DNA of 64,000 nt from an uncultured Paracoccaceae bacterium (lineage in GTDB: Bacteria > Pseudomonadota > Alphaproteobacteria > Rhodobacterales > Rhodobacteraceae), in assembly GCA_947489705.1 (NCBI GenBank), contig CANLEQ010000001.1:124001-188000 (forward strand), given 5' to 3'. Every line of letters starts with the position of its first letter. The first letter of the stretch is position 1. The notes beneath the pieces were generated by a model that saw only the letters and a list, made by a program, of their open reading frames with translations, made no database searches and was not told the origin of the DNA. This document shows positions 20,335 to 35,780 of this stretch, piece by piece. The position numbers were made by a program, and so were the translations under genes.

Positions 20335-20336
20335 CG

Positions 20337-21110: not shown

Positions 21111-22099
21111 GCCATGTCGGCATCGACCGGATCGAGTCCGCACGCGACCGGATCGCGGGGCTGATCCGTCATACCCCCGTCGAGGCCTCGGCGTCGCTGT
21201 CCCGGATCGCGGGCCATCCCGTGCATCTGAAGTTCGAACACCAGCAATTCACCGGCAGTTTCAAGCTGCGCGGCGCCACGAACGCGGTCGGGCGGTTGAC
21301 CGACGCCGAACGTGCCCGAGGGGTGACCGGTGCCTCGACCGGCAACCACGGGAGGGCTTTGGCCTTCGCCGCACGGCGCGCGGGCGTCCGCTGCGTGATC
21401 TGCATGTCCGCACTGGTCCCGAAGAACAAGGTCGAGGCCATCGCCGCCGAGGGCGCCGAGATCCGCATCGTGGGCCGCAGCCAGGACGACGCCCAGGAGG
21501 AGGTCGATCGGCTGGTCGCGGAGGAGGGCATGGTGATGGTCCCGCCCTTCGACGACGCCCGCGTGATCGCCGGTCAGGGGACGCTGGGGCTCGAGCTTCT
21601 CGAGGACGTGCCGGACATCCGGGTCGCGCTGGTCCAGCTGTCTGGCGGCGGACTGATCGCGGGGGTCGCCGCGGCGTTGAAGGCACGCAACCCCGACATT
21701 CGGGTGATCGGCATCACCATGCGCCGCGGCGCCGCCATGCATGCGAGCCTCGCCGCCGGAAAACCCACCTTCGTCGAGGAGCTGCCGACGCTGGCCGATT
21801 CGCTCGGAGGCGGGATCGGACTGCGGAATCGCCATACCTTCGACATGGTGCGGGATCTGGTCGACGAGGTCGTCCTGCTCGACGAGGACGAGATCGCCGA
21901 CGGCGTCCGCCACGCCTATTGGCAGGAGCGGCAGGTGGTCGAGGGCGGCGGTGTCGTCGGCATTTCGGCCCTGCTGCACGGCCATGTCCGCCCCGACGGA
22001 CCCACCGCCGCGATCCTGACCGGCGCCAGCATCGACATGCACTTGCATCATCGCCTCATCTCGGGAGAGAACGTCGATCTGATGCAAGAGGCGGGTTGA
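21107..22099 (+). CDS. eutB: EutB, threonine-dehydratase-like PLP enzyme of hydroxyectoine use
   Basis: A 330-residue fold-type II PLP enzyme. The cofactor lysine is in FTGSFKLRGATNAV (near residue 50). The phosphate-binding loop is STGNHGRALAFAA and the glycine-rich cofactor loop is QLSGGGLIAGVAAAL. It resembles threonine dehydratase/serine racemase and is the expected dehydratase of hydroxyectoine breakdown. No C-terminal regulatory ACT-like domain is present, which distinguishes it from biosynthetic IlvA. It is translationally coupled to eutA and followed 5 bases later by eutC. Confidence 0.87.
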   Translation: MSHVGIDRIESARDRIAGLIRHTPVEASASLSRIAGHPVHLKFEHQQFTGSFKLRGATNAVGRLTDAERARGVTGASTGNHGRALAFAARRAGVRCVICMSALVPKNKVEAIAAEGAEIRIVGRSQDDAQEEVDRLVAEEGMVMVPPFDDARVIAGQGTLGLELLEDVPDIRVALVQLSGGGLIAGVAAALKARNPDIRVIGITMRRGAAMHASLAAGKPTFVEELPTLADSLGGGIGLRNRHTFDMVRDLVDEVVLLDEDEIADGVRHAYWQERQVVEGGGVVGISALLHGHVRPDGPTAAILTGASIDMHLHHRLISGENVDLMQEAG

Positions 22100-22104
22100 T
22101 CGAC

Positions 22105-23097
22105 ATGCCGAAGATCACATTGCTGTCGGAGGCGGACTTGCGCGGCCTCGTGACGCTCGACGCCGAGGCGGTCGATGTGGTCGAAGGCGCATTCCGGAGC
22201 CTCGCCGGCGGTGACGTCGTGATGCCCCCGATCCTGTCGATGGCCATTCCCGCAGCCAACGGCGAAGTCGACGTCAAGACGGCCTATATTCCCGGCCTGC
22301 CGGCCTTCGCGATCAAGGTTTCGCCCGGTTTCTTCGACAATCCCGCGATCGGCCTGCCGTCGACCTCGGGGCTCATGATGCTGCTTTCGGCCCGGACCGG
22401 CCAGGTCGAGGCGTTGCTGCTCGACAACGGCTATCTGACAGATTTGCGAACCGCGGCGGCGGGCGCCGTCGCGGCGCGCCATCTGGCCCGCGAGGGCGCC
22501 GAAAGCGTCGCGATCCTCGGGGCCGGCATGCAGGCGCGGCTGCAACTCCGCGCGCTCTGCCTCGTGCGCCCGATCCGCCGTGCCACGATCTGGGCACGCG
22601 ACCGCGCAAGGGCCGAGCTGGCGGCGAAGGAGCTTTCGGAAAGCCTCGGGATCGAGGTCGCTACGGCAGCGGGGGCCGAGGCGGCAATCGACGGCGCCGA
22701 CATCGTCGTGACCACGACGCCCGCGACCGAACCCATCGTGAGGGAGGCATGGCTGCGCCCCGGCCAGCACGTGACCGCCATGGGATCGGACCAGCATGCC
22801 AAGACCGAACTTGACCCGCAATGCGTCGCCCGCGCCGATCTTTACGTGCCCGACAGGCTGTCGCAGACGCGGTCGCTAGGCGAGCTTCGGGCCGCGATCG
22901 CGGCCGGCGCCGTGCCGGCCGAGCGCGACTATGCCGAACTCGGCGCCATCGTGGCGGGCACGGCACCCGGCCGCACCGCCGAAGACCAGATCACCATCGC
23001 CGACCTGACCGGCACCGGCGTCCAGGATACGGCGATCGCAAACCACGCGTTCCGCCGCGCCCGGGACGTCCGGGCCGGAACCCTTTACGAAAGTTGA
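22105..23097 (+). CDS. eutC: EutC, ornithine-cyclodeaminase-like enzyme of hydroxyectoine use
   Basis: A 330-residue member of the ornithine cyclodeaminase / mu-crystallin family. Visible features are the N-terminal VEGAFRSLAGGDVVMPPI, the NAD-binding segment VAILGAGMQARLQLRAL (near residues 130-150) and ADIVVTTTPATEPIV. Family members reduce or deaminate imines with NAD(P). In the eut operon it is thought to complete the conversion of hydroxyectoine to ectoine with EutA and EutB. It is 3 bases from eutD. Confidence 0.88.
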   Translation: MPKITLLSEADLRGLVTLDAEAVDVVEGAFRSLAGGDVVMPPILSMAIPAANGEVDVKTAYIPGLPAFAIKVSPGFFDNPAIGLPSTSGLMMLLSARTGQVEALLLDNGYLTDLRTAAAGAVAARHLAREGAESVAILGAGMQARLQLRALCLVRPIRRATIWARDRARAELAAKELSESLGIEVATAAGAEAAIDGADIVVTTTPATEPIVREAWLRPGQHVTAMGSDQHAKTELDPQCVARADLYVPDRLSQTRSLGELRAAIAAGAVPAERDYAELGAIVAGTAPGRTAEDQITIADLTGTGVQDTAIANHAFRRARDVRAGTLYES

Positions 23098-23100
23098 CCC

Positions 23101-24288
23101 ATGGCCATCATCGACACGTTCCGATTCACCGACGCGGAGTACGAAAACCGCCTTTCCCGCACGCGCGCGGCGATGGAGAAGGCCGGCATCGACGTCCTCA
23201 TCACCTCCGACCCGTCGAACATGGCGTGGCTCACCGGCTATGACGGCTGGTCGTTCTACGTCCATCAGGCGGTGGTGATCGGCCCCACGGGAGAGCCGGT
23301 GTGGTTCGGCCGCGAACAGGATGCGCAGGGCGCGCTCCGGACCACCTACATGGCCGAGCCCGACATCATCGGCTATCCGGATTATTTCGTGCAATCGACC
23401 GAGCGGCACCCGATGGACTATCTCGCCGCGAAACTCACCGAGCGCGCCTGGCATACGGGGCGGATCGGGGTCGAGATGGACAATTACTGGTTCTCGGCGC
23501 GCGGGTATAGGTCGCTCGCGGATGGGCTCGGCAACGAGTTGATCGACATCACGGGGCTGGTGAACTGGCAGCGCGGGATCAAGTCCGAGGCGGAACTCAA
23601 CCACATGCGCAAGGCCGCGCGGATCGTCGAACGGATGCATGCCCGCATCGCGGACAAGGTCGAACCCGGGATGCGCAAATGCGACCTTGTGGCCGATATC
23701 TACGACGCGGCCCTGCGCTATGACGAGGAGTGGGGGTTCGGCGGCGACTATCCCGCGATCGTGCCGCTGCTTCCGTCGGGGACCGACGCGGCCGCGCCGC
23801 ACCTCACCTGGGACGACAAGCCGATGAAGTCCGGCGAGGGCACGTTCTTCGAGATCGCGGGATGTTTCCGTCGGTATCATTGCCCGCTTTCCCGCACGAT
23901 CTTTCTCGGCAAACCGACGCAGCAATTCCTCGACGCGGAGAAGGCCGTCCTCGAAGGGATGGATATGGGGCTCGAGGCGGCGCGGGCGGGCAATACCTGC
24001 GAGGACATCGCGAACGCCTTCTTCGACGTGCTGCGCAAGTGGGGCATCACCAAGAACAACCGCACGGGCTATCCGATCGGGCTCAGCTATCCGCCCGACT
24101 GGGGCGAGCGGACCTGCTCGCTGCGACCGGGCGACAAGACCGAGCTCAAGCCCGGCATGACCTTCCATTTCATGACCGGCCTCTGGCTCGACGATTTCGG
24201 CTTCGAGATCACGGAAAGCATCGCGATCACCGACGGTGCACCCGAATGCCTGGCCGAGGTGCCGCGCAAGCTGATCGTCAAGGATTGA
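23101..24288 (+). CDS. eutD: Ectoine hydrolase EutD/DoeA (M24 peptidase fold)
   Basis: A 395-residue pita-bread-fold protein of the M24 family, the usual length of DoeA/EutD. An N-terminal creatinase-like domain (with SDPSNMAWLTGYDGWSFYVHQ) is followed by a catalytic domain containing RKAARIVERMHARI and GYPIGLSYPPDWGE. The enzyme opens the ectoine ring to acetyl-diaminobutyrate. In characterised systems it acts with the deacetylase EutE/DoeB, which should follow but is absent here: the next gene is on the other strand and unrelated. A perfect hairpin closes the operon. Confidence 0.9.
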   Translation: MAIIDTFRFTDAEYENRLSRTRAAMEKAGIDVLITSDPSNMAWLTGYDGWSFYVHQAVVIGPTGEPVWFGREQDAQGALRTTYMAEPDIIGYPDYFVQSTERHPMDYLAAKLTERAWHTGRIGVEMDNYWFSARGYRSLADGLGNELIDITGLVNWQRGIKSEAELNHMRKAARIVERMHARIADKVEPGMRKCDLVADIYDAALRYDEEWGFGGDYPAIVPLLPSGTDAAAPHLTWDDKPMKSGEGTFFEIAGCFRRYHCPLSRTIFLGKPTQQFLDAEKAVLEGMDMGLEAARAGNTCEDIANAFFDVLRKWGITKNNRTGYPIGLSYPPDWGERTCSLRPGDKTELKPGMTFHFMTGLWLDDFGFEITESIAITDGAPECLAEVPRKLIVKD

Positions 24289-24295
24289 GGGCCAG

Positions 24296-24318
24296 CCTCC
24301 GGCGGCCGCCGCCGGAGG
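24296..24318. terminator. Perfect hairpin between eutD and the convergent hydrolase gene
   Basis: Stem CCTCCGGCGG (24296-24305) and CCGCCGGAGG (24309-24318), a perfect 10-base-pair inverted repeat with a 3-base loop, 7 bases after the eutD stop. It lacks a T-tract but lies exactly at the junction of two convergent operons, so a bidirectional terminator is the likely role. Confidence 0.65.
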
Positions 24319-24357
24319 TCGCCCAATTGGCCTTCGCCCGGCGGACGGGCGACGCCT

Positions 24358-26373
24358 TCAGGAATGGTCCCGAGGGATCGAGACGGACCAGTCATGCTCC
24401 CGCTCGAGCGTGGCCCCGTCCCACGCGCGAAGCTTCGCGACGATGTGATAGAATTCGGCGTCGCACGTCATGCGGGTCTGCGTCTCTGTCTTCACGCGCC
24501 ATCCGTCGCGGGACATCTCGTGGATCCAGGTCACTTCGCCTTCCGCCGATGCAGGGTCCGAGGGCAGGATCGAATACCGCTCCTTCCCTTCGGCGGAATG
24601 ATAGAATTGCTGCGGCTCGATCGTGGCCGCACCTTCGTGATCTCCGATTTCGATCACGATCCGGCCGGTATCGAGATCCTCGCCCACCCGCCATTCCGAG
24701 CGTGGCGGCTCGTGGAACGAGACGTCGAGGGGGGTTCCGGAACGCGGCGGAGCGAAGTCCGGCAGGCGCGGCCCCGCATCCGCGCGGACCGGCAGGCGAA
24801 GCTCCGAGGCGGCCGGAAGGACGGTCAGGGTCACGGGCTCCGGCGCGGGCCAGGCGATCGGAAAGTAGGTCGTCGAAAGCGACAGGCGCAGGCGATGTCC
24901 GGCCGGCAGGGATTGGGCCATGTGCTTGAACGAAAGCGAAACACTCATCTCCTCGCCGGGAACGAGTGTCGCGGGCGCCGCATGTCCGCCATGGTGATTG
25001 AGGTTCAGCAATCCATAGCTTACCCGCGCGGCCGTCCCGTCCGGGGCGACGTCGACCAGGCGCGCGGCGATCTGGGCGACCGGGCGGTCGACGCGGCATC
25101 TGAGGCTCAGATGGGCGTCGCCGACCAGATGGAGATCGGAGTCGAGCGGCGCCGTCTCGAAGACGAGGCTTCCGGCGTCGTCGCGCCGCTGGTCCCCGGG
25201 CTGGTCGCCGGGATGCGCGTAGGAGCACCATTTGCCGCCATGCAGACCCACCCAGAGCGGCGAGCAGACCGAGAGGGGCGCGCCGGACCGATCGGCGTCG
25301 CCCCCGAGCGACCCGTCCGCCCCGAGGCCGAGCACCATCGGCGTCACATTGGGCGACGGCCAGGAGGGCTCGGCGATCCAGTGACCTTCGCGGCTGGCAT
25401 AGTGACTGCGCGGCGGCGCGCTCTGCTGCAAAAACAGGCGCAGCGGCTCTTCGTCCATGATGCCGGTATCGTGGCCCTTGAGCCAGTGATCCCACCACCG
25501 CGTCTCTTCCGACAGCCAGTCGATCGCGGGACCGGGTGCGCCGAGATGGGGATAGCGGTGCGCCCAGGGCCCGACGATGCCCTTTGCGGGCCCGCGGAGG
25601 TTCTCGACCAGCCGGAACACCGCGCTGCAATACCCGTCGGCCCAACCGGAAACCGCGTAGACCGGCACCTCGATATCGTCCCAGTCCTCGCAGACCGAAC
25701 CATGCTGCCAGAACGCGTCGCGCGTTTGATGCCGCAGCCACGTGTCGAGCCACAATCCGGATTCGTCGAGCCGTCGATGCCACATGTCGCGCCAGCGCTC
25801 GCCGACATGCGCGGGGTCGGGCGGCAGTGTGTTGATGCCGAACATCACCGAGGCCCATGACAGCTGTTCGACCAATGGGACGCCGCCCATGTAATGGATG
25901 TCGTCCGCATAGCGGTCGTCGGTGGAGCAGATCGTCACGACCGCCTTCAGCGCGGGCGGACGCAACGCGGCGAGCTGCAAGCCGTTGAAGCCGCCCCATG
26001 AGATCCCGACGATGCCGACGCCGCCGTCGCACCAGGCCTGGTCGGCGATCCACGCGATGACGTCGCAGCCATCGGCAAGCTCGAACTCGGTATATTCGTC
26101 TTCCATCACCCCTTCGGACTCGCCCGTTCCGCGCAGATCGACCCGCACATAGGCGTAGTCGCGCGCGGCGAGCCAGGGCGCGCGCGCCGCGTCGCGCTCC
26201 AGCGTCTTGTCGTTCTTGCGATAGGGAATGTATTCGAGGATTGCCGGAACCGGAGCATTCTCGGCGCCGTCCGGCATCCAGATCCGCGCGGCAAGACGCG
26301 TGCCGTCCGGCATCGGGATCTCGACATGCGGGAGTTCCCGAACCAGGCGTGGCAGGTCGGTATCGATCTTCAT
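24358..26373 (-). CDS. CocE/NonD (peptidase S15) family hydrolase
   Basis: A 671-residue alpha/beta hydrolase. The nucleophile is in GISWGGFNGLQLA (Ser near 123) and the oxyanion region in YAYVRVDLRGTGESEG. A C-terminal jelly-roll domain (from about residue 390) is typical of Xaa-Pro dipeptidyl-peptidases, cocaine esterase and glutaryl acylases. There is no signal peptide, so it is cytoplasmic. It is last in the run cphB-cphA-ATP-grasp, 70 bases after the ATP-grasp stop, and may cleave a peptide or amide made or released by those enzymes. The substrate is unknown. The start at 26373 (MKIDTD) is preferred to the upstream 26403. Confidence 0.82.
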   Translation of the reverse strand: MKIDTDLPRLVRELPHVEIPMPDGTRLAARIWMPDGAENAPVPAILEYIPYRKNDKTLERDAARAPWLAARDYAYVRVDLRGTGESEGVMEDEYTEFELADGCDVIAWIADQAWCDGGVGIVGISWGGFNGLQLAALRPPALKAVVTICSTDDRYADDIHYMGGVPLVEQLSWASVMFGINTLPPDPAHVGERWRDMWHRRLDESGLWLDTWLRHQTRDAFWQHGSVCEDWDDIEVPVYAVSGWADGYCSAVFRLVENLRGPAKGIVGPWAHRYPHLGAPGPAIDWLSEETRWWDHWLKGHDTGIMDEEPLRLFLQQSAPPRSHYASREGHWIAEPSWPSPNVTPMVLGLGADGSLGGDADRSGAPLSVCSPLWVGLHGGKWCSYAHPGDQPGDQRRDDAGSLVFETAPLDSDLHLVGDAHLSLRCRVDRPVAQIAARLVDVAPDGTAARVSYGLLNLNHHGGHAAPATLVPGEEMSVSLSFKHMAQSLPAGHRLRLSLSTTYFPIAWPAPEPVTLTVLPAASELRLPVRADAGPRLPDFAPPRSGTPLDVSFHEPPRSEWRVGEDLDTGRIVIEIGDHEGAATIEPQQFYHSAEGKERYSILPSDPASAEGEVTWIHEMSRDGWRVKTETQTRMTCDAEFYHIVAKLRAWDGATLEREHDWSVSIPRDHS

Positions 26374-26443
26374 GGGCGTGCCTCGGTCGCTGTCTCGGGC
26401 CAAGCGTCTGCCTACCCCGCCCCCGACCCGAACGCCAGCGTCC

Positions 26444-27742
26444 TCAATCGACGATGTCGGTGAATTCGTAGTTCAGCCGCTTCATTACCTGCTCGTAGTT
26501 CCACAGAAGCTTCGACGGCGTGCTCGCCCCCATCCACAGCGATGCGACGGCATAGCTGTAGGCGTCCTGTTCGGGAAGTTCCGACAGTTTCATGCCCTTC
26601 GTCACGTTCGACACGATGCGGGTGCCCTCGACCTGTTCGGCGGCCACCTCGATCTCGGCGCGCGAGGGTGCGCGCGCGACCGTCGCGTCGGGAAAGAACA
26701 CGCGATAAAAGAACTCCGCCGCGACCTTCTTCGAGCCGTCGCGATGCGGCATGTCGGGCTTGCGCCCCAGACCCAGATCCACCGTCACCTGCTGGTGGCT
26801 CACGCCATCGACCATCTCGAAGAGATCGCAATGCGACTGGGCGATCCGGGTGTTGATTTCCAGAAGCCAGATCCGGTTCTCGACCTCGTCCCAGAAATAC
26901 TCGATGTTGAAGCCCGCATTGTCGTAGCCGATATGCGCCATCACGCGGCGCGTGATGTCCCACATCTGCTCCTGAACGCCCCGCGGCAGGTTCGAGGGGT
27001 AGAGGTAGTAGAAGAAACTCAGCACCTGCGGATAGCGGATCGAATCGACCGTTCCGTAGGGCACGACCTCACCGTTGTGGACATATCCCTCGACGGTGCA
27101 TTGCCGACCGCCGATCACCCGCTCGGCCATGCAGTAATGCCCCTCGATCTTCCTGATCTCGTCGGGCAGATCGGCCTGCGACAGGACGTGGTCGAACGGC
27201 TCGCCGATGCTCCTGATCTCGGCGCGCAGCTTCTCGGTCGCGTAGTCGAAATCCTCCGGACTGTCGATGCGGAAGCCCAGCCGCGAGCCCGAAGACTTGA
27301 TCGGCTTGACGAAGAAGGGAAAGCGCAGCCCCGCCTCGCCGATCTTCGACAGCGCATCGTCGTCGAAGGGATCGAATGCCGTGAAGGTCGGGATGTGATC
27401 CGGGATCACCTCGGCCATCACGCTGCGCGACCAGAACTTGTGCTCGCATTTCAGCAGGCTTTCGAGCGAGGCGTTCCGCGTCCCGTACTTCTCGCAAAGC
27501 AGCGGCAGCATCGTCGAGACCGGAAAGTCAATGTAGCCGACGATCGCGTCGATAGAGCCCTCATGCGCATCGAGCGTGGCATCGGCCTCGGCGAGCATCG
27601 CCGGGATGTCGAAGTCCTGCGTCTCGTAGACCTGCGCGGGCGTCAGGAGCGGGTGGAACACGACGTCCTCGACCCCCCTGAGCCGCTTGAGGCGCTCGGC
27701 ATTGTGGTCGTTCAGCCCGACCACGAAAACGTTCTTCGTCAT
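26444..27742 (-). CDS. ATP-grasp ligase in the cyanophycin operon, function unknown
   Basis: A 432-residue ATP-grasp protein related to D-Ala-D-Ala ligase, carbamoyl-phosphate synthase and amino-acid ligases. ATP-binding stretches are FPFFVKPIKSSGSRLGFRI (near residues 145-165) and the metal-binding WLLEINTRIAQSHCD (near 295-310). Such enzymes join a carboxylate to an amine through an acyl phosphate. It follows cphA by 41 bases on the same strand, so it probably makes or modifies an amino-acid amide linked to cyanophycin. I do not recognise a characterised homologue. ATG 27742 has GGAGGGAGAGG just upstream. Confidence 0.8.
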   Translation of the reverse strand: MTKNVFVVGLNDHNAERLKRLRGVEDVVFHPLLTPAQVYETQDFDIPAMLAEADATLDAHEGSIDAIVGYIDFPVSTMLPLLCEKYGTRNASLESLLKCEHKFWSRSVMAEVIPDHIPTFTAFDPFDDDALSKIGEAGLRFPFFVKPIKSSGSRLGFRIDSPEDFDYATEKLRAEIRSIGEPFDHVLSQADLPDEIRKIEGHYCMAERVIGGRQCTVEGYVHNGEVVPYGTVDSIRYPQVLSFFYYLYPSNLPRGVQEQMWDITRRVMAHIGYDNAGFNIEYFWDEVENRIWLLEINTRIAQSHCDLFEMVDGVSHQQVTVDLGLGRKPDMPHRDGSKKVAAEFFYRVFFPDATVARAPSRAEIEVAAEQVEGTRIVSNVTKGMKLSELPEQDAYSYAVASLWMGASTPSKLLWNYEQVMKRLNYEFTDIVD

Positions 27743-27783
27743 GTCCTCTCCCTCCGGCAATTCCCCGTGCCGGCCGCTATTGT

Positions 27784-30426
27784 TCAGGCCTGAGCCAGTT
27801 CCGCCTGGTGCAGAAAGCTCCGACCCTTGAGACGCTCGGTCGCGCCTTGGATATCATCGACGAGAAGCAGCAGGAAATCGCCCTTCTGTGCCGACGAGAT
27901 GGCGCGATCGGTAGCCGCATGTTCGTCGTGGATCGTCTCGACCTGACAGGACGTCCCCGCAGCCTCGGCGCCGTCGTGGATCAGCTGCGCGGTCTCGCCC
28001 GTGGCGCGGCCGCGCGCATCCGTCTCGTAGATGAAGAGCAGGTCGCACATGCCCGCAAGCTCGGCGCCCAGCGCGGCGAGGTCCTCGTCACGGCGATTGC
28101 CGGGCGCGGTGGCCACGCCGATCCGGCGCTGCGTCGCCAGCCCCTCGACCAGGGGTCGCAAGGCCTGGAGCGCGGGGACGTTGTGGCCGTAATCGATCAG
28201 GCACTTCACCCCGTCTGCCTCGAAGTAGTTCGTGCGCCCGGGCATCTGCGCGGGCGTCGGGTGGAAGGTCAGCAATCCCGCCCGGATATCGCCGATCTCG
28301 ACGCCATGGGCCGTCGCGGCGGCCGCCGCGGCCATGGCGTTCTGCACGTTGAAGGGCGCATGCCCCTCGAAGGCGATCGGCACGTCGTTCACTTCGCAGA
28401 TCTCGACGGTCACGCGGCCCCGCAGCAGGACGATCTTGCCGTTCTTGACCGTGAAGACCATGCCGAGCTCGCTCAGATGCTGGCTCAGGGCGGGGTTTTC
28501 GGGGTCCATCGTGAAATAGATGATCTCGCCCCGCGCCCAATGCGTGCCATGCTCCATCACCAGCGGGTCGTCCGCGTTGAGAACGCAATACCCGCCCTCG
28601 CGCTTCACCGCGTCGACCACGACGGTCTTGCAGCGCGCGAGATCCTCGAGCGTGTGGACGTCGCGCTCTCCCAGATGGTCGGAAGCGATGTTGAGCAGCA
28701 CGCCCACGTCGCATTCGTCGAAGCCAAGGCCGCGCCGCATGATGCCGCCGCGCGCGACCTCGAGCACCGCATGCTCGACCGTCGGTTCGCGCAGCACGGC
28801 ATGCGCGGCGGCGGGCCCGGAATAATCGCCGCGCAGGATCACGTGGTTGTCGATCTCCACCGTGCCGGTACAGCCGAGCCCCACCGACACTCCGGACTGG
28901 CGCAGGATATGCGCGGTCAGCCGGGTCGTCGTCGTCTTGCCGTTGGTCCCGGTGATCGCGGTGATCGGGATGCGCCCGTTGTCGGTCGGGTCGGGGAACA
29001 GCATGTCGACGATATGCTCGCCCACGGGACGCGGCGTTCCGTGCGTGGGCGACATGTGCATCCGGAAACCGGGGCCTGCGTTGACCTCGACGACGCCGGC
29101 GGACTGGTTCTCCAGCGGTTCGGACAATGTCTCCGCCAGAAGGTCGATGCCGATGACGTCGAGCCCGACGAGCCGCCCGACCCGCTCCATGGCGAAGCGC
29201 ACCTCGGGATGCACTTCGTCGGTGAGGTCGCTCGCGGTTCCGCCGGTCGAGATGTTGGCGGTCGATTTGAGGAACGCCATTTCTCCCTCGGGCAGGACGG
29301 TGTCGAGGGTCAGACCGGCCTGTTCGAGCATCCGGTGCGTCTGTTCGTCGACATGGATCTGCGTCAACAGGTTCTCGTGGCCGACGCCGCGGCGCGGATC
29401 CTCGTTCTCGCGGTCGATCAAGGCCTGGATCGTGCTGCTGCCGTCGCCCGTCACGTGCGCGGGCCGGCGGCGCGCGGCGGCCACGAGCTTGCCGCCGATC
29501 ACCAGCATCCGGTGATCCTCGCCCCGGATATAGCTTTCGACGATCACGCCTTCGGATCCTTCGCGCAGCCGCGCGGTGGCCGCGTCGAAGCCCGATCTGA
29601 GGTCTTCCATCGAGGCGATGTCGGTCGTGACGCCGCGCCCGTGGTTGCCCGAAAGCGGTTTCGTCACGACCGGCCAGCCGATCCATTCGGCGGCTTGCTG
29701 CGCCTCTTCGAAGGAATAGCAGGTCTGGCCCTTCGGCACGGGTACGCCGGCCTCGTCGAGGATCTGCTTGGTCCATTCCTTGTCGTCGGCGATCGAGTGA
29801 CCGATGATTCCCGAGGCATCCGTCACGGTCGCCTGGAACCGGCGTTGCTTGATGCCGTGGCCGAGCTGGGTATAGCTCGTCCCCTCGGTCAGGTTGTAGG
29901 CGGGAATGTTGCGGTCGCGCGCGGCCTTGACGATCGAGCCGGTCGAGGGGCCGAGCGCGTTCGCATCGCGCACTTCCTTGAGGTGATCGATATGCGGCTG
30001 GAGATCGACGTCCTCACCATCGAACAGCGCCTTGGCGATCTCTACCGCCGCCTCGCCGGCGGCAAGGCCGGTCGCCTCGTCGCGATAGCGGTAGACGACA
30101 TTGTAGATGCCCGTCTCGTAGCTGTCGACGGTCTTGCCGTAGCCGACCGAAAAGCCGACGAGGTTCTGCAGCTCGATCGCGAGATGCTCGACCAGGTGAC
30201 CGGCATAGGTGCCGGCGCGGACCCGCTGGAGAAAGCCTCCGGCCTCGCCGACCGAGCAGCGATGCTCGTAGATCGAGGGGATCAGCGTCTCGAGCCGCTC
30301 CGCCATGTTCGCGACCTGATCGCTGGGCCGCTGCTCCAGCTCCTCGATGTCCAGCCGCATGTAGATCGCCTGATAGCGGCTGTAGTAGTTCGGACCGCGC
30401 AGCGCACGGTGTTCAAGAATACGCAT
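27784..30426 (-). CDS. cphA: Cyanophycin synthetase
   Basis: An 880-residue enzyme that builds the storage polymer of an aspartate backbone with arginine side chains, using ATP. Domains in order are an N-terminal CphA-specific domain (about 1-160), an ATP-grasp domain (about 200-480, with KPLSGNHGRGVTTDI) that adds aspartate, and a Mur-ligase-like C-terminal half. The P-loop TGTNGKTTTTR near 490 adds arginine. The length matches cyanobacterial CphA1 rather than the shorter CphA2. Its start overlaps the cphB end by 14 bases. Aspartate could come from the ectoine pathway next door. Confidence 0.96.
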   Translation of the reverse strand: MRILEHRALRGPNYYSRYQAIYMRLDIEELEQRPSDQVANMAERLETLIPSIYEHRCSVGEAGGFLQRVRAGTYAGHLVEHLAIELQNLVGFSVGYGKTVDSYETGIYNVVYRYRDEATGLAAGEAAVEIAKALFDGEDVDLQPHIDHLKEVRDANALGPSTGSIVKAARDRNIPAYNLTEGTSYTQLGHGIKQRRFQATVTDASGIIGHSIADDKEWTKQILDEAGVPVPKGQTCYSFEEAQQAAEWIGWPVVTKPLSGNHGRGVTTDIASMEDLRSGFDAATARLREGSEGVIVESYIRGEDHRMLVIGGKLVAAARRRPAHVTGDGSSTIQALIDRENEDPRRGVGHENLLTQIHVDEQTHRMLEQAGLTLDTVLPEGEMAFLKSTANISTGGTASDLTDEVHPEVRFAMERVGRLVGLDVIGIDLLAETLSEPLENQSAGVVEVNAGPGFRMHMSPTHGTPRPVGEHIVDMLFPDPTDNGRIPITAITGTNGKTTTTRLTAHILRQSGVSVGLGCTGTVEIDNHVILRGDYSGPAAAHAVLREPTVEHAVLEVARGGIMRRGLGFDECDVGVLLNIASDHLGERDVHTLEDLARCKTVVVDAVKREGGYCVLNADDPLVMEHGTHWARGEIIYFTMDPENPALSQHLSELGMVFTVKNGKIVLLRGRVTVEICEVNDVPIAFEGHAPFNVQNAMAAAAAATAHGVEIGDIRAGLLTFHPTPAQMPGRTNYFEADGVKCLIDYGHNVPALQALRPLVEGLATQRRIGVATAPGNRRDEDLAALGAELAGMCDLLFIYETDARGRATGETAQLIHDGAEAAGTSCQVETIHDEHAATDRAISSAQKGDFLLLLVDDIQGATERLKGRSFLHQAELAQA

Positions 30427-31273
30427 TCCTGGGCTCCAGGGTATTTTGCACGAGCTCGTCCGGCCCTAGGACGCGTCGCTCTCTCAGGCTGTATCCGTAT
30501 CCATCGACCAGCGCGTGCATGGTGACGTTGTGAACCGTAACGGCCTCACCGTCATTGAGGTCGAAGACATTCGATCCGGTTATGGACGAACTGTCAACGA
30601 GGATGACGTGGCCCGGGCCGAAAGCGCGGATCACGTCGTCCTCGAAAAGCACCGCCGCGTCCTCGCCGAGCCCGACCCCGAGATATTCCGGATTTGTCGC
30701 GCCGACTTCCATCAACCTCGAAAAACGACCGCGTTCGAGGAAATGGGTGTCGATGATGACGCCGTCGACGAAACCGAACCCGCCCGACATCTTCACCGCG
30801 CCCTTGCGCAGGCTGTCATCGGCATGGCCGCCATAGACCATCGTCGTCGACTGGCAGGCGGCCCCCGCGCTGGTGCCGGCGACCACCGTTCCCTTCGCAT
30901 GCTGCGCGCGGATCGCGGCCAGGGCCTTCGAGGCTCCGAAGATGTTGGTCAGGCGCATCTGGTCGCCGCCCGAGATGAAGATCACGTCGGACCGGCGAAT
31001 CATCGCGATGAAGTCCTCGTCGGCGGCATCGCGGCGGTCCCGGACGCGGATGTCGAGGACCTCCGAGGCGCCGAGCGACGAGAACGCGGCCGCATATCCC
31101 GCGAAGACGTCGTCGGGGATGGCGCTGGCCGTGGTGATCACGCCGACCACCGCGTCGCTCTTGCCGGAAAAATCTATGACGCGTTTGAGGATCTTCGCCT
31201 CGCTCGACTTGTCCTCGGCGCCGCCGATCGCGATGAGCGGTCCCCTGACGGGCACGTTCACTGACATGTTCAT
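30413..31273 (-). CDS. cphB: Cyanophycinase
   Basis: A 286-residue serine exopeptidase of the S51 family that splits cyanophycin into beta-Asp-Arg dipeptides. The nucleophile motif is GTSAGAACQS (Ser near 134), with the family segments ISGGDQMRLTNI and GVIIDTHFLERGRFSRL. No signal peptide is seen, so it acts inside the cell on stored granules. It is the first gene of the minus-strand operon and overlaps cphA, so synthesis and breakdown enzymes are made together. GGAG lies about 8 bases before ATG 31273; ATG 31267 is an alternative. Confidence 0.95.
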   Translation of the reverse strand: MNMSVNVPVRGPLIAIGGAEDKSSEAKILKRVIDFSGKSDAVVGVITTASAIPDDVFAGYAAAFSSLGASEVLDIRVRDRRDAADEDFIAMIRRSDVIFISGGDQMRLTNIFGASKALAAIRAQHAKGTVVAGTSAGAACQSTTMVYGGHADDSLRKGAVKMSGGFGFVDGVIIDTHFLERGRFSRLMEVGATNPEYLGVGLGEDAAVLFEDDVIRAFGPGHVILVDSSSITGSNVFDLNDGEAVTVHNVTMHALVDGYGYSLRERRVLGPDELVQNTLEPRNAYS

Positions 31274-31459
31274 AAATTGGTCTCCATGCTCAGAGTGCCC
31301 CTATATGCAGAGACCGACTTTAACAATAATTGGTTAATTGTATATGCCTGCCGGATGGATTGCCTTGACTGCGCGCTCCGGCGAGCCGAGACGACCATTA
31401 TCTGGGCATCAACCGAACGACTCGTCCACCCGGGTTGCGGTACGAAAAGAAGGGGCAGC
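31274..31459. promoter_or_regulatory. Divergent promoter region between cphB and iaaA
   Basis: A 186-base divergent spacer with a markedly AT-rich core (31318-31346) in otherwise GC-rich DNA. It contains CAATAATTG (31324-31332), a small palindrome, followed by GGTTAATTG. On the minus strand TTGTTA (31322-31327) is followed about 15 bases later by TATAGG, a plausible cphB promoter. The palindrome overlaps this -35 element and could be an operator for both sides. No specific regulator gene is adjacent. Confidence 0.4.
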
Positions 31460-32380
31460 ATGGCCTATTCCATTGCGATCCACGGCGGCGCCGGGGTGTT
31501 GCCCGCGCAACACATGACGCCCGAACGCGAGGCCGCCTTCCGTGCGGCTCTCGACCGCGCGCTGACGGCCGGGGAAACCGTTCTGGCCTCCGGGGGCTCG
31601 GCCCTCGATGCGGTTACCGCTGCGGTCTGTGCGCTCGAGGACGAGCCGCTCTTCAACGCGGGCCGCGGGGCGGTCTTCACCCGCGACGGGCGCCACGAGA
31701 TGGATGCGGCCGTGATGGACGGACGCGATCGCCGTGCTGGATGCGTCGCGGGCGTGATGGGGCCGCGCAACCCGGTCCGGCTGGCGCGGGCGATCATGGA
31801 GCGGACCGATCACGTGCTGATGATCGGAGAGGGCGCTCTGCGCATCGGCCGCGATGCCGGGATCGAGGACGCGCCGGAAGAGTACTTCTTCACGCAGGAA
31901 CGCTACGACACCCTTCAGGAAACCCTCCGGATGGAGGCCGAGGGGACCCTCGACGACGATCCCGCGCGGCGGCACGGAACCGTGGGCGCGGTGGCCCGCG
32001 ACGCCGCGGGGAACCTGGCCGCGGCCACGTCGACCGGGGGCATGACCGCCAAGCGTTCCGGACGGGTCGGCGACAGTCCCCTCATCGGCGCGGGCACCTT
32101 TGCCTGCAACCGCACCTGCGCGATCTCGGCCACCGGCGACGGCGAAGCCTTCATCCGCCTTTCCGTGGCCCACGAGATCGACGCCCGCATGCGGCTCGCC
32201 GGCGACACGCTGGCCGAGGCCGCCGATCATGTGGTGAACGTGGCGCTGCCCGAACTTAACGGCTCCGGCGGCCTCGTCGCCATCGACGCCGAGGGTCGCG
32301 TCTCGGCCCCGTTCAACTGCGAGGGCATGTACCGCGCCTGGGCCGGCGACGCGATCGAGCGCGAGGTGGCGATCTACTGA
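31460..32380 (+). CDS. iaaA: Isoaspartyl peptidase / plant-type L-asparaginase
   Basis: A 306-residue N-terminal nucleophile hydrolase. The precursor should self-cleave before the threonine in RRHGTVGAVARD (near residue 174), giving alpha and beta chains. IAIHGGAGVL and FNAGRGAVFT are family hallmarks, and STGGMTAKRSGRVGDSPLIG holds the substrate loop. It hydrolyses beta-aspartyl dipeptides. Placed divergently from cphB-cphA, its likely task is to split beta-Asp-Arg from cyanophycin into aspartate and arginine. ATG 31460 has AGGGG upstream, and the frame before it is not conserved-looking. Confidence 0.93.
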   Translation: MAYSIAIHGGAGVLPAQHMTPEREAAFRAALDRALTAGETVLASGGSALDAVTAAVCALEDEPLFNAGRGAVFTRDGRHEMDAAVMDGRDRRAGCVAGVMGPRNPVRLARAIMERTDHVLMIGEGALRIGRDAGIEDAPEEYFFTQERYDTLQETLRMEAEGTLDDDPARRHGTVGAVARDAAGNLAAATSTGGMTAKRSGRVGDSPLIGAGTFACNRTCAISATGDGEAFIRLSVAHEIDARMRLAGDTLAEAADHVVNVALPELNGSGGLVAIDAEGRVSAPFNCEGMYRAWAGDAIEREVAIY

Positions 32381-32430
32381 GCGCGGCCCCGCGGCGAGCG
32401 GAGCGGTTTCGCACCGCCCTCGCCGCGGGC

Positions 32431-33030
32431 TCAGCCGCCGAAGCCGCGCGCGCCGATACCGCCGCCGGTCCGCGATGCGCCGAAACCGCCGCGGCTCTGC
32501 ACGGCCGCGCGCGACAGGGGCGCCGCGGCCCGGGTGCTGCTCGAGGCCGCGAACGAGTTCGGGCGCAGCTGGGTCTTGCCCCTGAGCCCCGAGAGGACAG
32601 TACCGCCCCCGGGTGTCGCGAAACGTCCTCCCGGCGTGCGATAGAGCGGCTTGGCCGCATAGCCCCGCCCGCCCAGCATGTTGCCGATCATGTAGCCGGC
32701 CAGGAGCGGAAGGAAGACGGACGACCCGTCGGAGCGTGTCTCGACAACGCATTCCCCGCCATGCTGCTCCTCGCAAAGTGCCTCGTCCTCGTAGCGCGGT
32801 GCGCTTTCCCGATGGATCGCCTGCGCCTCCTCGAGACCGGCCGCGCAATCCTCCGCGGTGAAGTCGTTCTCGGGAAGGGCGGCCAGCGCGCGACATTCCT
32901 CGACCGAGGGGAAGACCGTCGCGTCGACCTGCTCCTCGGGCTGGCACGCGGCGAGGCCGAAGGCAGCGGTGCCGAGGAGCAGGACGCGCGCATGGCGGGC
33001 GCGCTTGCGGGGCGGGTGCGGTGTCATCAT
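32431..33030 (-). CDS. ygiB: YgiB-like (DUF1190) lipoprotein-type protein
   Basis: A 199-residue protein of the DUF1190/YgiB family. A lipoprotein-like signal (hydrophobic stretch ending LAACQ near residue 28) precedes a cysteine-bearing domain with PSVEECRAL, FTAEDCAAGLEEA and CEEQHGGECV. A glycine- and arginine-rich, low-complexity C-terminus follows. The function is unknown; ygiB is found next to ygiC across proteobacteria. Its ATG 33030 lies 1 base after the ygiC stop, so the pair is co-translated. The frame is open far upstream, but the signal and position fix the start. Confidence 0.82.
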   Translation of the reverse strand: MMTPHPPRKRARHARVLLLGTAAFGLAACQPEEQVDATVFPSVEECRALAALPENDFTAEDCAAGLEEAQAIHRESAPRYEDEALCEEQHGGECVVETRSDGSSVFLPLLAGYMIGNMLGGRGYAAKPLYRTPGGRFATPGGGTVLSGLRGKTQLRPNSFAASSSTRAAAPLSRAAVQSRGGFGASRTGGGIGARGFGG

Positions 33031-33031
33031 G

Positions 33032-34192
33032 TCATGCCTCGATGTAATGCGGGCGAAAGCGGCTGGTATCCTGGGTGATCCGCGACCGATCGGCGCGCAG
33101 GCCCAGACCGTGCGCCTCCGGCCCGACGAGCCAGACCCCGCACATGACGTATTCCTCGCCGAACCTGGGCAGGGGCGCATAGGCCTGAAGGATCCGGGGA
33201 TGGGCGTCGTAGGCGGTATCGGCCGACGCCTCGCTCTCGTCGCCCGCACGGATACGGATGCCGGCCCCCTCGCGGGAGAAGATCGGCTTTTCCACGACGT
33301 CCGGGCCGAGATCGCTTGCATCGCCATCGGCAAAGACCGCCGGAAGCAGGTTCGGATGCCCCGGAAACATGTCCCAGAGAATGGGAAGGATGCCCTTGTT
33401 CGACAAAAGCGCCTTCCACGCGGGCTCGAGGATGCGGCAGCCCGCGCCCGCGATCGCGTCGGCAAAATCGTCGCGCAGCATGTCCTCCCACGGATAAAGC
33501 TTGAAAAGCGCGCCGATCACCCGATCCTCGCCATCCGCGAACTGCCCCGTCTCGGTCACGCCGATCTGGCGGATATCGGTGAAATGCGCGCCCATCCCGG
33601 CCTCGCGCGCGGCCCAGGCTATGGTCTCGACGGTCGCGTAATCCTCGACCGCATCCTCGAACGCGGCAAAATGAATGTCGGTATCGGGCTCGAACATCGC
33701 CCGGAACCGTTCGACGATCGCCTCGTGAATGCCGTTGAACTGGTCCGTGCCCTCCGGCAGGCGTCCCGACGCGATTATGTCCTCGAGCCAGTGCCACTGG
33801 AACCCCGACGTCTCGTAGAGCGTGGTGGGCGTGTCGGCGTTGTATTCGAGAAGCTTGGCAGGCCCCCCGGCGCCGTAGGAAAAGTCCATGCGGCCATAGA
33901 GCTCGGGGGCCTCGTCGCGCCAGCTTTGCGCGACGAGATCCCGATGAGCCGGCGGAATCGCCAACCGGTCCATCAGCTCCTCGGATTCCACGATCCGGGC
34001 CACCGCGTCGCGGCACATTCCGTGCAATTCTTCGGCGGGCCGCTCCAGCTCCTCCTCGATCTCGGAGAGCGTGAAGGCATAGGCCGCCGATTCGTCCCAG
34101 TAGAGCGGACCGTCGAGATGGTGGAAGGTGAAGCCAGCGGCCTCCGCCTTCTCGGTCCAGTCGGGTCGCGCTCCCAGATCGTCGCGCCGCAT
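33032..34192 (-). CDS. ygiC: YgiC-like glutathionylspermidine synthase-family ATP-grasp ligase
   Basis: A 386-residue protein, exactly the length of E. coli YgiC, of the glutathionylspermidine synthase family (synthetase half only, with no amidase domain). Conserved stretches include LLEYNADTPTTLYE, LFKLYPWEDMLRDDF, PAWKALLSNKGILPILW and the ATP-binding VEKPIFSREGAG. These ATP-grasp enzymes form amide bonds between peptides and amines, but the YgiC product is not known. It is paired with ygiB. The downstream xylB-side hairpin at 34238-34256 separates it from the xylB transcript. Confidence 0.9.
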   Translation of the reverse strand: MRRDDLGARPDWTEKAEAAGFTFHHLDGPLYWDESAAYAFTLSEIEEELERPAEELHGMCRDAVARIVESEELMDRLAIPPAHRDLVAQSWRDEAPELYGRMDFSYGAGGPAKLLEYNADTPTTLYETSGFQWHWLEDIIASGRLPEGTDQFNGIHEAIVERFRAMFEPDTDIHFAAFEDAVEDYATVETIAWAAREAGMGAHFTDIRQIGVTETGQFADGEDRVIGALFKLYPWEDMLRDDFADAIAGAGCRILEPAWKALLSNKGILPILWDMFPGHPNLLPAVFADGDASDLGPDVVEKPIFSREGAGIRIRAGDESEASADTAYDAHPRILQAYAPLPRFGEEYVMCGVWLVGPEAHGLGLRADRSRITQDTSRFRPHYIEA

Positions 34193-34237
34193 CCCCGCAT
34201 CCCCCGCATGCTCATTAAATGGCTTGCCACGATATAG

Positions 34238-34256
34238 CGCCCCGGCAAGCGGGGCG
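34238..34256 (-). terminator. Hairpin downstream of xylB
   Basis: CGCCCC (34238-34243) and GGGGCG (34251-34256) form a 6-base-pair stem with a 7-base loop between the xylB stop and the ygiC start. It is followed on the minus strand by the AT-rich CTATATC. It is a weak candidate terminator for the tal-xylB transcript. Confidence 0.4.
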
Positions 34257-34282
34257 ATAGCGGCCCCCGGGTCGCGTTCGCG

Positions 34283-35734
34283 TTACTGGATGTCGCGGAT
34301 CGCCGGATAGGCCGCCCGGAAGGCGTCGTAGGCCGCGTCGAAATCGGCTACGAGGCTTTGCTCCGGCTCGAAGGTCCGGCCGATCTCGGGGCTCTTCACG
34401 ATCGCTTCGGGATCCGCGCCCGTCGCCGCGATGAGGCCGAGCCGTGCGGCGCCGAGGGCCGCGCCGAACTCCCCGCCCGAAGGCAGTTCGACCGGCACGT
34501 CGAGAACCGTGGCGATCAGACGCAGCCAGTAATCCGATCGGGTCCCACCGCCGATGGCGATCAGCCTGTCGATATGCCCGCCGGCCTTCTTCAGGGCCTC
34601 GTGACTGTCGCGCAGGCCGAACGCCACCCCTTCGAGGACGGCGCGGGTCATCTCGTCGCGACCGGTATCGGTCCCGAGCCCGGTGAAGCTGCCGCGGATC
34701 GCGGCGTCGTTATGCGGCGTGCGCTCTCCCGAGAGATAGGGCAGGAACCGCACGCGGCCCGGGGCGTGCAAGCTGTCCCCCAGATCCGAGGTCAGCCGGG
34801 CGGGCTCGACACCGGTGATCCGCGCCAGCCAGTTGAGGTTGTCGGTGGCCGAGAGCATCACGCCCATCTGGTACCACCGCCCCGGCAACGCATGGCAGAA
34901 CGTGTGCAGCGCGGTTTCCGGCGCGGGATTGTAGCCGTCGCGCGCGGCCAGAAGGACACCCGACGTGCCGAGCGACAGGAACCCGTCGCCCTCGGCCTGC
35001 GCCCCGATCCCGACTGCGGCGGCCGCGTTGTCGCCCGCACCGCCGGCGATCGTGACCTCGCCCTCGATACCCCATGCCTCTGCCAGATCGCGGCGAAGCG
35101 CGCCCGCGGGCGCGGAGCCCTCGACCAGACGGGGCATCTGGTCCGCGCGCATATGCGACGCCTCGAGCAGCATGTCGGACCAGTCCCGCGCACCCACGTC
35201 GAGCCAGGAGGTTCCCGCACTGTCGGACATGTCGGCCACATGATCGCCGGTCAGATAGAAGTTCATGTAGGCCGCGGGGAGCAGGACCTTCGCGACGCGC
35301 GCGAAATTCTCGGGCTCGTGCTTGCGCACCCAGGCGAGCTTGGGGGAAGTGAAGCCGGGAAACACGATGTTGCCCGAAACCGCGCGCACGTCGACCATCG
35401 CGTCGAGTTCCGCCGCCTCGGCATGCGATCTGGTGTCGTTCCAGAGGATGCAGGGACGGATCACCCTGTCGTCCCCGTCCAGCAGGGTCGCACCGTGCAT
35501 GTGCCCGGCGACGCCGATCCCCTTCAGCTTCGCGAATTCCGGGTGGGACGCGCGCAATTCCGACACCGCCCCTTCGAGCGCGTCGATCCACTCGGCGGGA
35601 TCCTGTTCGCTCCACCCCGAATGCGGCGTGCTGACCCCGCAGGGTCGTTCGGCCGAGCCCAACGGAACGCCGTTGTCGTCGACCAGCAGGGCGCGAAGCC
35701 CGGACGTACCAAGATCGATGCCGAGAAAGCTCAT
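34283..35734 (-). CDS. xylB: Xylulokinase
   Basis: A 483-residue FGGY-family kinase that phosphorylates D-xylulose to xylulose-5-phosphate. Seen are the N-terminal phosphate loop LGIDLGTSGLRALLVD, the substrate segment VAGHMHGATLLDG, ILWNDTRSHAEA, and the C-terminal ATP-binding GGGTRSDYWLRL. It follows tal by 46 bases on the same strand, a sensible pairing because both feed the pentose phosphate pathway. No xylose isomerase or sugar transporter is adjacent. GGGAGGGG precedes ATG 35734. Confidence 0.92.
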   Translation of the reverse strand: MSFLGIDLGTSGLRALLVDDNGVPLGSAERPCGVSTPHSGWSEQDPAEWIDALEGAVSELRASHPEFAKLKGIGVAGHMHGATLLDGDDRVIRPCILWNDTRSHAEAAELDAMVDVRAVSGNIVFPGFTSPKLAWVRKHEPENFARVAKVLLPAAYMNFYLTGDHVADMSDSAGTSWLDVGARDWSDMLLEASHMRADQMPRLVEGSAPAGALRRDLAEAWGIEGEVTIAGGAGDNAAAAVGIGAQAEGDGFLSLGTSGVLLAARDGYNPAPETALHTFCHALPGRWYQMGVMLSATDNLNWLARITGVEPARLTSDLGDSLHAPGRVRFLPYLSGERTPHNDAAIRGSFTGLGTDTGRDEMTRAVLEGVAFGLRDSHEALKKAGGHIDRLIAIGGGTRSDYWLRLIATVLDVPVELPSGGEFGAALGAARLGLIAATGADPEAIVKSPEIGRTFEPEQSLVADFDAAYDAFRAAYPAIRDIQ

Positions 35735-35780
35735 CAGGCGTTCCCCTCCCGTAGTAATTCGCGAATGCAGGTTGTGGCGG

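What the first reader, a model, noticed from the sequence alone, without database searches (positions are those of the whole stretch)
24358..31273. Cyanophycin operon with an unassigned ATP-grasp ligase and an S15-type hydrolase
Seen: cphB, cphA, an ATP-grasp protein (26444-27742) and a CocE/NonD hydrolase (24358-26373) lie on one strand with gaps of -14, 41 and 70 bases, and iaaA is divergent. Known: CphA, CphB and IaaA are sufficient for making and recycling cyanophycin. Inference: the extra ligase and hydrolase form a second make-and-break pair acting on cyanophycin, its dipeptide, or a derived amide. This could be an undescribed tailoring or salvage branch.
Basis: partly seen in the sequence, partly recalled or inferred. 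Interest (0 to 1): 0.72.

Follow-up and report, generated by a model that had tools for sequence, protein, structure and literature searches.

The report
Cyanophycin operon's extra ligase-hydrolase pair
In several unrelated groups of bacteria, many of them salt-tolerant, the genes that make and recycle the nitrogen-storage polymer cyanophycin come with two extra enzymes, one that looks able to join two amino acids and one that looks able to split them, which points to an undescribed side branch of nitrogen storage.

Summary
In detail: cphB, cphA, an ATP-grasp gene and a CocE/S15 hydrolase gene form a tight same-strand run, with iaaA divergent. The ATP-grasp protein models (pLDDT 93) closest to L-amino-acid (dipeptide) ligases; the hydrolase keeps a Ser-Asp-His triad. 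Both lie together in 68 of 75 named loci. In a 77-row ligase tree every cphA-linked row (25) falls in one group of 45 (basal support modest), from Rhodobacterales, Halomonadaceae, Salinisphaera and one Bacteroidales genome, in at least four gene orders, with iaaA or iadA; a second group of 23 has none. In a 48-genome family sample all 13 genomes with full CphA have this ligase and none of the 31 without it has full CphA, but 4 of 17 carriers lack CphA. In a phylum sample 8 of 10 carriers have ectoine synthase, against 50 of 388 others. I read the pair as a make-and-break module for a soluble amide, most likely a dipeptide, on the monomer side of cyanophycin metabolism, perhaps an osmolyte. Substrates are unknown. 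A primer role is unlikely: the window CphA has the primer-independence motif.

The parts
30413..31273 (-). cphB, cyanophycinase (peptidase family S51, GTSAGA motif)
   Evidence: TIGR02069 222.7 bits, cut-off 126.6; PF03575; motif position
27784..30426 (-). cphA, cyanophycin synthetase, 880 aa, with the Cx19HxxEH N-domain motif
   Evidence: TIGR02068 1122 bits, cut-off 850; motif from residue 57
26444..27742 (-). ATP-grasp ligase resembling L-amino-acid (dipeptide) ligases, 432 aa
   Evidence: PF13535; profile match to 3vot; model pLDDT 93.1; Foldseek matches BacD/YwfE, BL00235, RizA
24358..26373 (-). CocE/NonD (S15) serine hydrolase, 671 aa; Ser125, Asp246, His272
   Evidence: TIGR00976 247.9 bits, cut-off 66.3; PF02129 and PF08530; motif positions; nearest solved fold cocaine esterase
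31460..32380 (+). iaaA, isoaspartyl aminopeptidase (Ntn hydrolase), divergent from cphB
   Evidence: PF01112 342.8 bits; HGTVGAV at residue 172

Best explanation
The ATP-grasp protein is an ADP-forming carboxylate-amine ligase that works like L-amino-acid ligases. It joins two free amino acids, at least one probably from the Asp/Arg pool that cyanophycin stores and releases, into a soluble amide, most likely a dipeptide. The CocE/S15 protein is the intracellular serine hydrolase that splits that product again. Together they are a make-and-break module on the monomer side of the cyanophycin cycle (CphA makes the polymer; CphB and IaaA or IadA return Asp and Arg). Carriers are often salt-tolerant, so the product may serve as a compatible solute or soluble nitrogen buffer. 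Shown: gene order, families, folds, pairing, co-occurrence with CphA and with ectoine synthase. Inferred: dipeptide chemistry, opposite directions of the two enzymes, use of Asp or Arg, osmotic role.
For: Fold: the ATP-grasp model has BacD as first Foldseek match, and BL00235 (TM 0.73-0.75 by target length) and RizA (0.70) have the best target-length TM in the 50 rows shown; the family profile matches 3vot (BL00235) over residues 95-361 of 425, E 1.5e-7. Catalysis: K146, E281, E295, N297 and R299 are invariant in 33 aligned members. Pairing: CocE in 68 of 75 loci. CphA link: in the locus for 49 of 75; elsewhere in the genome for 6 of 8 searched unlinked loci of the same group; family of G600: 13 of 17 carriers against 0 of 31 others, Fisher p 1.2e-8 by genome and 1.2e-5 by genus. 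Recurrent linkage in other orders: CocE-ligase divergent from CphB-CphA-IadA in 4 genomes and a Bacteroidales cluster, Salinisphaera CphA-IadA-ligase-CocE; IadA confirmed in one representative of each. Salt: 8 of 10 carriers have ectoine synthase against 50 of 388 others, p 4.7e-6.
Against: The pair exists without CphA: CphA in 3 of the 17 other genomes, and 4 of 17 carriers in the family of G600 have none. Three of the 49 cphA-linked loci show no CocE: L022 and L061 with 7 kb read on both sides, L059 with 2.9 kb. Urea amidolyase and a biotin carboxylase match the family profile with better E-values than 3vot, over the C-terminal half, and many biotin carboxylases match the fold, so dipeptide chemistry rests on moderate fold similarity. 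The salinity evidence is indirect, rests on few lineages (4 of the 10 carriers are in one family), two carriers (G013, G774) lack ectoine synthase, and habitats are recalled from names. None of ten searches of the held library showed an osmolyte made by such a pair. Counts are not corrected for shared ancestry.
Confidence: 0.48

Rival explanations
1. Tailoring branch: the ligase modifies cyanophycin or beta-Asp-Arg itself, for example by capping it or adding a third amino acid, and the hydrolase removes the addition.
For: Operon position directly after cphA; group-wide co-occurrence with CphA; residues VST of the DFPVST segment are invariant in 80 of 80 rows of the cphA-associated group and variable in the 23 rows of the other, which would fit a substrate specific to this group.
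Against: The second group keeps the same pair mostly without CphA, and 4 of 17 carriers in the family of G600 lack CphA, so a free-standing substrate is more economical.
Confidence: 0.22
2. Salvage branch: the hydrolase is a further beta-Asp-Arg or Asp-Arg dipeptidase and the ligase runs in an unrelated reaction.
For: S15/CocE relatives include aminopeptidases and alpha-amino-acid ester hydrolases; IaaA and IadA from cyanophycin clusters are promiscuous and not specific for beta-Asp-Arg (PMC10206079, passages).
Against: IaaA already lies in 43 of the 49 cphA-linked loci and IadA in the Salinisphaera, family-of-G600 and Bacteroidales clusters; the hydrolase stays with the ligase where CphA is absent.
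Confidence: 0.12
3. Halophile hitchhiker: the pair serves salt adaptation only and lies beside cphA by shared transfer, with no functional link.
For: The pair occurs in genomes without CphA in many lineages whose names suggest salt-lake or marine sources; ectoine-synthase association.
Against: In the family of G600 the two co-occur even when apart (9 of the 13 double carriers), and linkage recurs in different orders and with different CphA, including one only 45% identical.
Confidence: 0.13
4. Primer supply: the ligase makes the short beta-Asp-Arg primers that some CphA1 enzymes need.
For: The minimal primer is (beta-Asp-Arg)-Asp (PMC9262961, passages), a product a ligase could help make.
Against: The window CphA and 53 of 54 CphA sequences from ligase loci (four of them repeat copies or the window itself) carry Cx19HxxEH, the motif that paper ties to primer independence; the other, L070, begins after the cysteine because the locus is cut.
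Confidence: 0.03

Closest known systems
L-amino-acid alpha-ligases BacD/YwfE, BL00235 (3vot), RizA (4wd3)
   Same: ATP-grasp fold; first Foldseek match and best target-length TM in the rows shown; profile match to BL00235
   Different: 13-16% identity; sits with an S15 hydrolase and cyanophycin genes; keeps EINTR, a motif like that of biotin carboxylases (recalled); activity untested
CocE/NonD hydrolases (cocaine esterase; also alpha-amino-acid ester hydrolases and X-Pro dipeptidyl-peptidases)
   Same: Family score over cut-off, catalytic triad, PepX_C domain
   Different: 22-23% identical to cocaine esterase in the structural alignment; regularly paired with the ligase; no signal peptide apparent by eye
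Cyanophycin gene clusters cphA1-cphB-iaaA/iadA (PMC10206079, passages seen)
   Same: CphA, CphB and IaaA or IadA; Roseivivax halodurans, whose cluster-borne IaaA that paper characterised by crystallography, has the same five-gene cluster (L023)
   Different: The main text of that paper holds no occurrence of ATP-grasp, CocE or ligase as word starts; here two more genes belong to the cluster
NAGGN osmolyte system (N-acetylglutaminylglutamine amide)
   Same: A dipeptide osmolyte made by an ATP-grasp-type synthetase, with a peptidase in the cluster (recalled)
   Different: The window ligase has no match to the NAGGN synthetase model TIGR03103 at E 1e-3

Membership tests
L-amino-acid alpha-ligase | ATP-grasp fold closest to known dipeptide ligases | tested here: met
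   rank 1 BacD; BL00235 TM 0.69-0.70 (query) and 0.73-0.75 (target); biotin carboxylases 0.51-0.66 (query). The margin is moderate
L-amino-acid alpha-ligase | Clear sequence membership over a curated cut-off | tested here: not met
   No NCBIfam cut-off reached; only general Pfam ATP-grasp models. I therefore say it works like one, not that it is one
L-amino-acid alpha-ligase | Conserved catalytic residues | tested here: met
   K146, E281, E295, N297, R299 invariant in 33 aligned members; their roles are recalled from the superfamily
L-amino-acid alpha-ligase | ATP-dependent dipeptide formation | not testable with these tools
   needs an assay
CocE/NonD hydrolase | TIGR00976 cut-off | tested here: met
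   247.9 against 66.3
CocE/NonD hydrolase | Ser-Asp-His triad | tested here: met
   Ser125, Asp246, His272 invariant in 19 aligned members; assignment by motif, roles recalled
Cyanophycin cluster | CphA1 equivalog with cyanophycinase | tested here: met
   TIGR02068 and TIGR02069 over cut-off
Cyanophycin cluster | Isoaspartyl dipeptidase nearby | tested here: met
   IaaA in the window (Pfam cut-off); IadA (TIGR01975 over cut-off) in one Salinisphaera, one family-of-G600 and one Bacteroidales cluster
NAGGN system | GNAT/ATP-grasp synthetase TIGR03103 | tested here: not met
   no match for the window ligase at E 1e-3

The most novel reading that the evidence does not exclude
In salt-tolerant bacteria, cyanophycin is one half of an osmotic and nitrogen buffer: Asp or Arg released from the osmotically inert polymer is turned by the ligase into a soluble, so far unknown dipeptide osmolyte when salinity rises, and the S15 hydrolase returns it to the polymer's monomer pool when salinity falls. 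The second group of the pair, found mostly in genomes without CphA including methanogenic archaea, makes the same or a related osmolyte on its own.
Probability: 0.27. Interest if true: 0.85.

Novelty: new variant of a known kind. Interest (0 to 1): 0.66.

Why it matters
Cyanophycin is usually described as a closed cycle of three activities. A recurrent two-gene addition, in Alpha- and Gammaproteobacteria and in one Bacteroidales genome, means the cycle has an undescribed branch, found beside a cluster whose IaaA already has a crystal structure. If the product is a dipeptide osmolyte, it would join nitrogen storage and osmoadaptation and supply new dipeptide ligases. The prediction is directly testable with two soluble enzymes and a metabolite profile.

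Tried and rejected
Primer-maker role: weakened by the Cx19HxxEH motif in the window CphA. NAGGN synthesis: no model match. Ectoine link: the ectoine-breakdown genes beside the operon are not a conserved neighbour; DoeA lies near the ligase in 1 of 75 loci. Conserved third partner: neighbours in CphA-less loci differ between lineages (judged by eye and by clustering); the nearest to one is a gene shared by 3 Salinisphaera loci, an ArgE/DapE-type deacylase in the one tested, L068. Promoter and terminator scan: counts no higher than in shuffles. Rfam: 0 matches at gathering score in window 20000-36000. Plasmid search: 6 records, all under 60% identity; no CocE annotated near the ligase in the two inspected. 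Literature: searches showed no paper describing an ATP-grasp/CocE pair with cyanophycin, judged from listings and the passages named; that library holds no preprints and few subscription-journal papers. A lead not settled: the DFPVST segment may lie near BL00235 Pro85, a specificity residue (PMC6920838, passages), but this is extrapolated from the offset of a local alignment that starts about ten residues later.

Limits: the gene caller is my own simple ORF scorer and it misses genes: it missed the CocE gene beside the ligase of G774, which tblastn finds. One search's output was cut, so part of L224-L226 was not seen. The scan used six 8-residue words and misses distant relatives. The first-group label in the 48-genome family was set by profile score (17 genomes at 639-689 bits, next copy 590), after seeing the gap; 12 of those 17 loci were also placed in the tree (G600, G892, G899, G901, G902, G906, G908, G912, G916, G919, G923, G924) and G920 is the same strain as L063, which was; G854, G907, G925 and G926 (G926 is in it as L217) aside, none contradicts the label. 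In the tree 113 rows were cut to 77: 5 left out as duplicates (one, L145 from G854, was not a duplicate and was left out by mistake) and 31 close Rhodobacterales-type relatives thinned; three re-fetched copies remained among the 80 rows. The deepest splits have modest support (90/56, 92/79), two Nitrospirota rows and 7 distant rows lie outside both groups, and the root is for drawing only. The Bacteroidales cluster lies on a 17-kb contig of a metagenome-assembled genome, so a binning error is possible.
Full report
What is there. The window carries cphB (31273-30413), cphA (30426-27784), an ATP-grasp gene (27742-26444) and a CocE/S15 hydrolase gene (26373-24358) on the minus strand, with iaaA divergent at 31460-32380. 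The genes overlap or nearly touch, and the cphA and ATP-grasp starts follow purine-rich stretches. CphA, CphB and the hydrolase pass curated NCBIfam cut-offs; IaaA passes its Pfam cut-off only; the ATP-grasp protein passes only general Pfam ATP-grasp models. The window lies in G000, contig C1; of 13 matches to the CphA model in that genome one, this gene, is over the cut-off.

The ligase. An AlphaFold2 prediction with 33 family members gave mean pLDDT 93.1. Foldseek ranks the dipeptide ligase BacD first, and BL00235 and RizA have the best target-length TM scores in the 50 rows shown; many biotin carboxylases also match. By profile, BL00235 (3vot) matches over residues 95-361 of 425 at E 1.5e-7; urea amidolyases and one biotin carboxylase score better but over the C-terminal half only. 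K146, E281, E295, N297 and R299 are invariant in the alignment. So it works like an amino-acid ligase by fold; membership in that family is not shown by a curated model.

The hydrolase. It has a cocaine-esterase-like fold with a PepX_C domain and invariant Ser125, Asp246 and His272 in 19 aligned members. Its own model is only moderate (pLDDT 76.5). I saw no signal peptide by eye, so I place both enzymes inside the cell; this was not computed.

The pair. A scan of one genome per species found 75 distinct named loci with a relative of the ligase. CocE lies in the same locus in 68 of 75. Of the seven without it, five end near the ligase on one side (226 to 395 bases for L076, L079, L082 and L086; 2.9 kb for L059), and two have 7 kb read on both sides (L022, L061). 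The two genes keep company in loci without CphA from Onishia, Thiohalobacter, Nitrospirota, Balneolales, Methanosarcinaceae and others, so they are a unit.

The cyanophycin link. CphA lies in 49 of 75 loci; in 41 of these 49, CphB, IaaA and CocE are all there with CphA and ligase on one strand. The ligase tree (77 of 113 rows) puts every cphA-linked row in one group of 45 rows (25 linked, 20 not), with basal support 90/56, against a group of 23 rows with none linked; two Nitrospirota rows and seven distant rows lie outside both. Of the 75 named loci, 58 belong with the first group: 49 linked, and of the 9 others 8 genomes could be searched, of which 6 have CphA elsewhere (four Onishia strains, Halomonas salinarum and Salinisphaeraceae UBA4764), while L057 and Salinisphaera japonica show none and L060 is not held. 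Group membership of thinned rows was taken from their 80% or higher identity to the window. Of the 17 other genomes CphA is in 3: Litchfieldella, a Spirochaetales and a Bacteroidales genome. Litchfieldella and the Bacteroidales genome also hold a second ligase copy of the first kind. Fisher p for 55 of 57 against 3 of 17 is 1.6e-10, uncorrected for ancestry.

A within-family test. In 48 genomes of the family of G600 (Halomonadaceae, judged by contigs shared with named Onishia and Litchfieldella records), 21 have some ligase of this family and 17 of these a high-scoring, first-group one; 13 have CphA over the cut-off. All 13 are among the 17; none of the 31 others, which include the 4 with only a lower-scoring ligase, has full CphA, though G915 has a match of 627 bits below the cut-off. 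By genus it is 8 of 9 against 0 of 15. Fisher p is 1.2e-8 by genome and 1.2e-5 by genus. Four genomes have the first-group ligase without CphA (G916, G919, G923, G924), which counts against an obligate link. In 4 of the 13 the genes are neighbours, CocE-ligase divergent from CphB-CphA-IadA; in the other 9 they lie far apart or on different contigs.

Other arrangements. A Bacteroidales genome (G890, a metagenome-assembled genome) has CocE-CphA facing CphB-ligase-IadA, with a CphA only 45% identical to the window's but well over the cut-off (1242 bits). Salinisphaera sp. GH4 has CphA-IadA-ligase-CocE (IadA confirmed). Pararhizobium mangrovi has IaaA-ligase tail to tail with CphA-CphB and no CocE. 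The same functions thus recur in different orders with either isoaspartyl dipeptidase.

In the window's own order. CphA is over cut-off in 15 of 149 genomes. Four of these (G000, G048, G117, G118) have the close ligase, and no genome in the sample has the close ligase without CphA; G013 has a more distant ligase (43%) with CocE and no CphA. CphA proteins with the ligase are about 880 aa with Cx19HxxEH, while the 11 without it are about 933 aa with Cx21HxxEH. So here the ligase goes with one CphA type.

Salt. In 398 phylum genomes the ligase profile matches 10 and ectoine synthase 58, with 8 in common; p 4.7e-6. G013 and G774 have the ligase but no ectoine synthase. Among the 29 CphA-bearing genomes of the same sample the ligase is in exactly the three with ectoine synthase (G000, G600, G854) and in none of 26 without (p 2.7e-4). 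Many named carriers suggest marine, hypersaline or soda-lake sources, but that is read from names and recall.

Mechanism. The most economical reading is a cytosolic pair that makes and splits a soluble amide, likely a dipeptide, from amino acids that cyanophycin stores. The osmolyte role is a further inference. A 2005 review names two uncharged amino-acid or dipeptide osmolytes and says the enzymes making them had not been explored (PMC1224877, passages). A primer role is unlikely because 53 of 54 CphA sequences from ligase loci carry the primer-independence motif and the last is cut short (PMC9262961, passages). A direct action on the polymer or on beta-Asp-Arg remains possible. Residues 75-77 (VST of DFPVST), invariant in 80 of 80 first-group rows and variable in the 23 others, are a candidate specificity site.

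What is known. The 2023 survey of cyanophycin clusters (PMC10206079, passages, not the whole text) counts cphA1, cyanophycinase, iaaA and iadA and characterised IaaA from Roseivivax halodurans; a word search of its main text finds no ATP-grasp, CocE or ligase. A halomonad genome paper mentions cyanophycin genes in passing (PMC5518125, one passage). I found no description of the pair in ten searches of the held library (listed under Tried and rejected).

Verdict. Chemistry and purpose await an assay.

Noticed in passing
window 20313-24288, + strand: Ectoine/hydroxyectoine breakdown genes eutA-like (TIGR02990 265.7 bits, below the 318 cut-off), eutB, eutC and doeA (over their cut-offs) run convergent to the cyanophycin operon; DoeA is near the ligase in only 1 of 75 named loci.
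   Followed up: partly
L103:7880-11217 (G000:C1:227897 onward): The window's genome has a second, divergent ligase-CocE pair (34% and 50% identical) outside the cyanophycin operon, next to a flavin oxidoreductase-like and a permease-like gene (the neighbour names are by eye).
   Followed up: partly
L114-L122, L124, L125: Eleven order members have a different CphA type, about 933 aa with a longer C-terminus and Cx21HxxEH instead of Cx19HxxEH, and lack the ligase.
   Followed up: partly
L068:6524-13013, L069, L070: Three Salinisphaera-type loci carry two ligase paralogues, CocE and a shared extra gene; in L068 that gene is an ArgE/DapE-type deacylase.
   Followed up: no
L110:7688-10064, L102:5794-7203, L101:5605-7116: Distant ATP-grasp relatives (30-33%) occur without CocE in the stretch read, one beside a metallo-beta-lactamase-fold gene (by eye) and two on plasmids.
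   Followed up: no
window 33032-34192, - strand: A glutathionylspermidine-synthase-type ATP-grasp gene (PF03738, 462 bits) lies just past iaaA.
   Followed up: no
L060:6794-10570: Rhodovibrio sodomensis has a ligase of the cphA-associated group (70%) with CocE; its genome was not held, so presence of CphA there is an open prediction.
   Followed up: no
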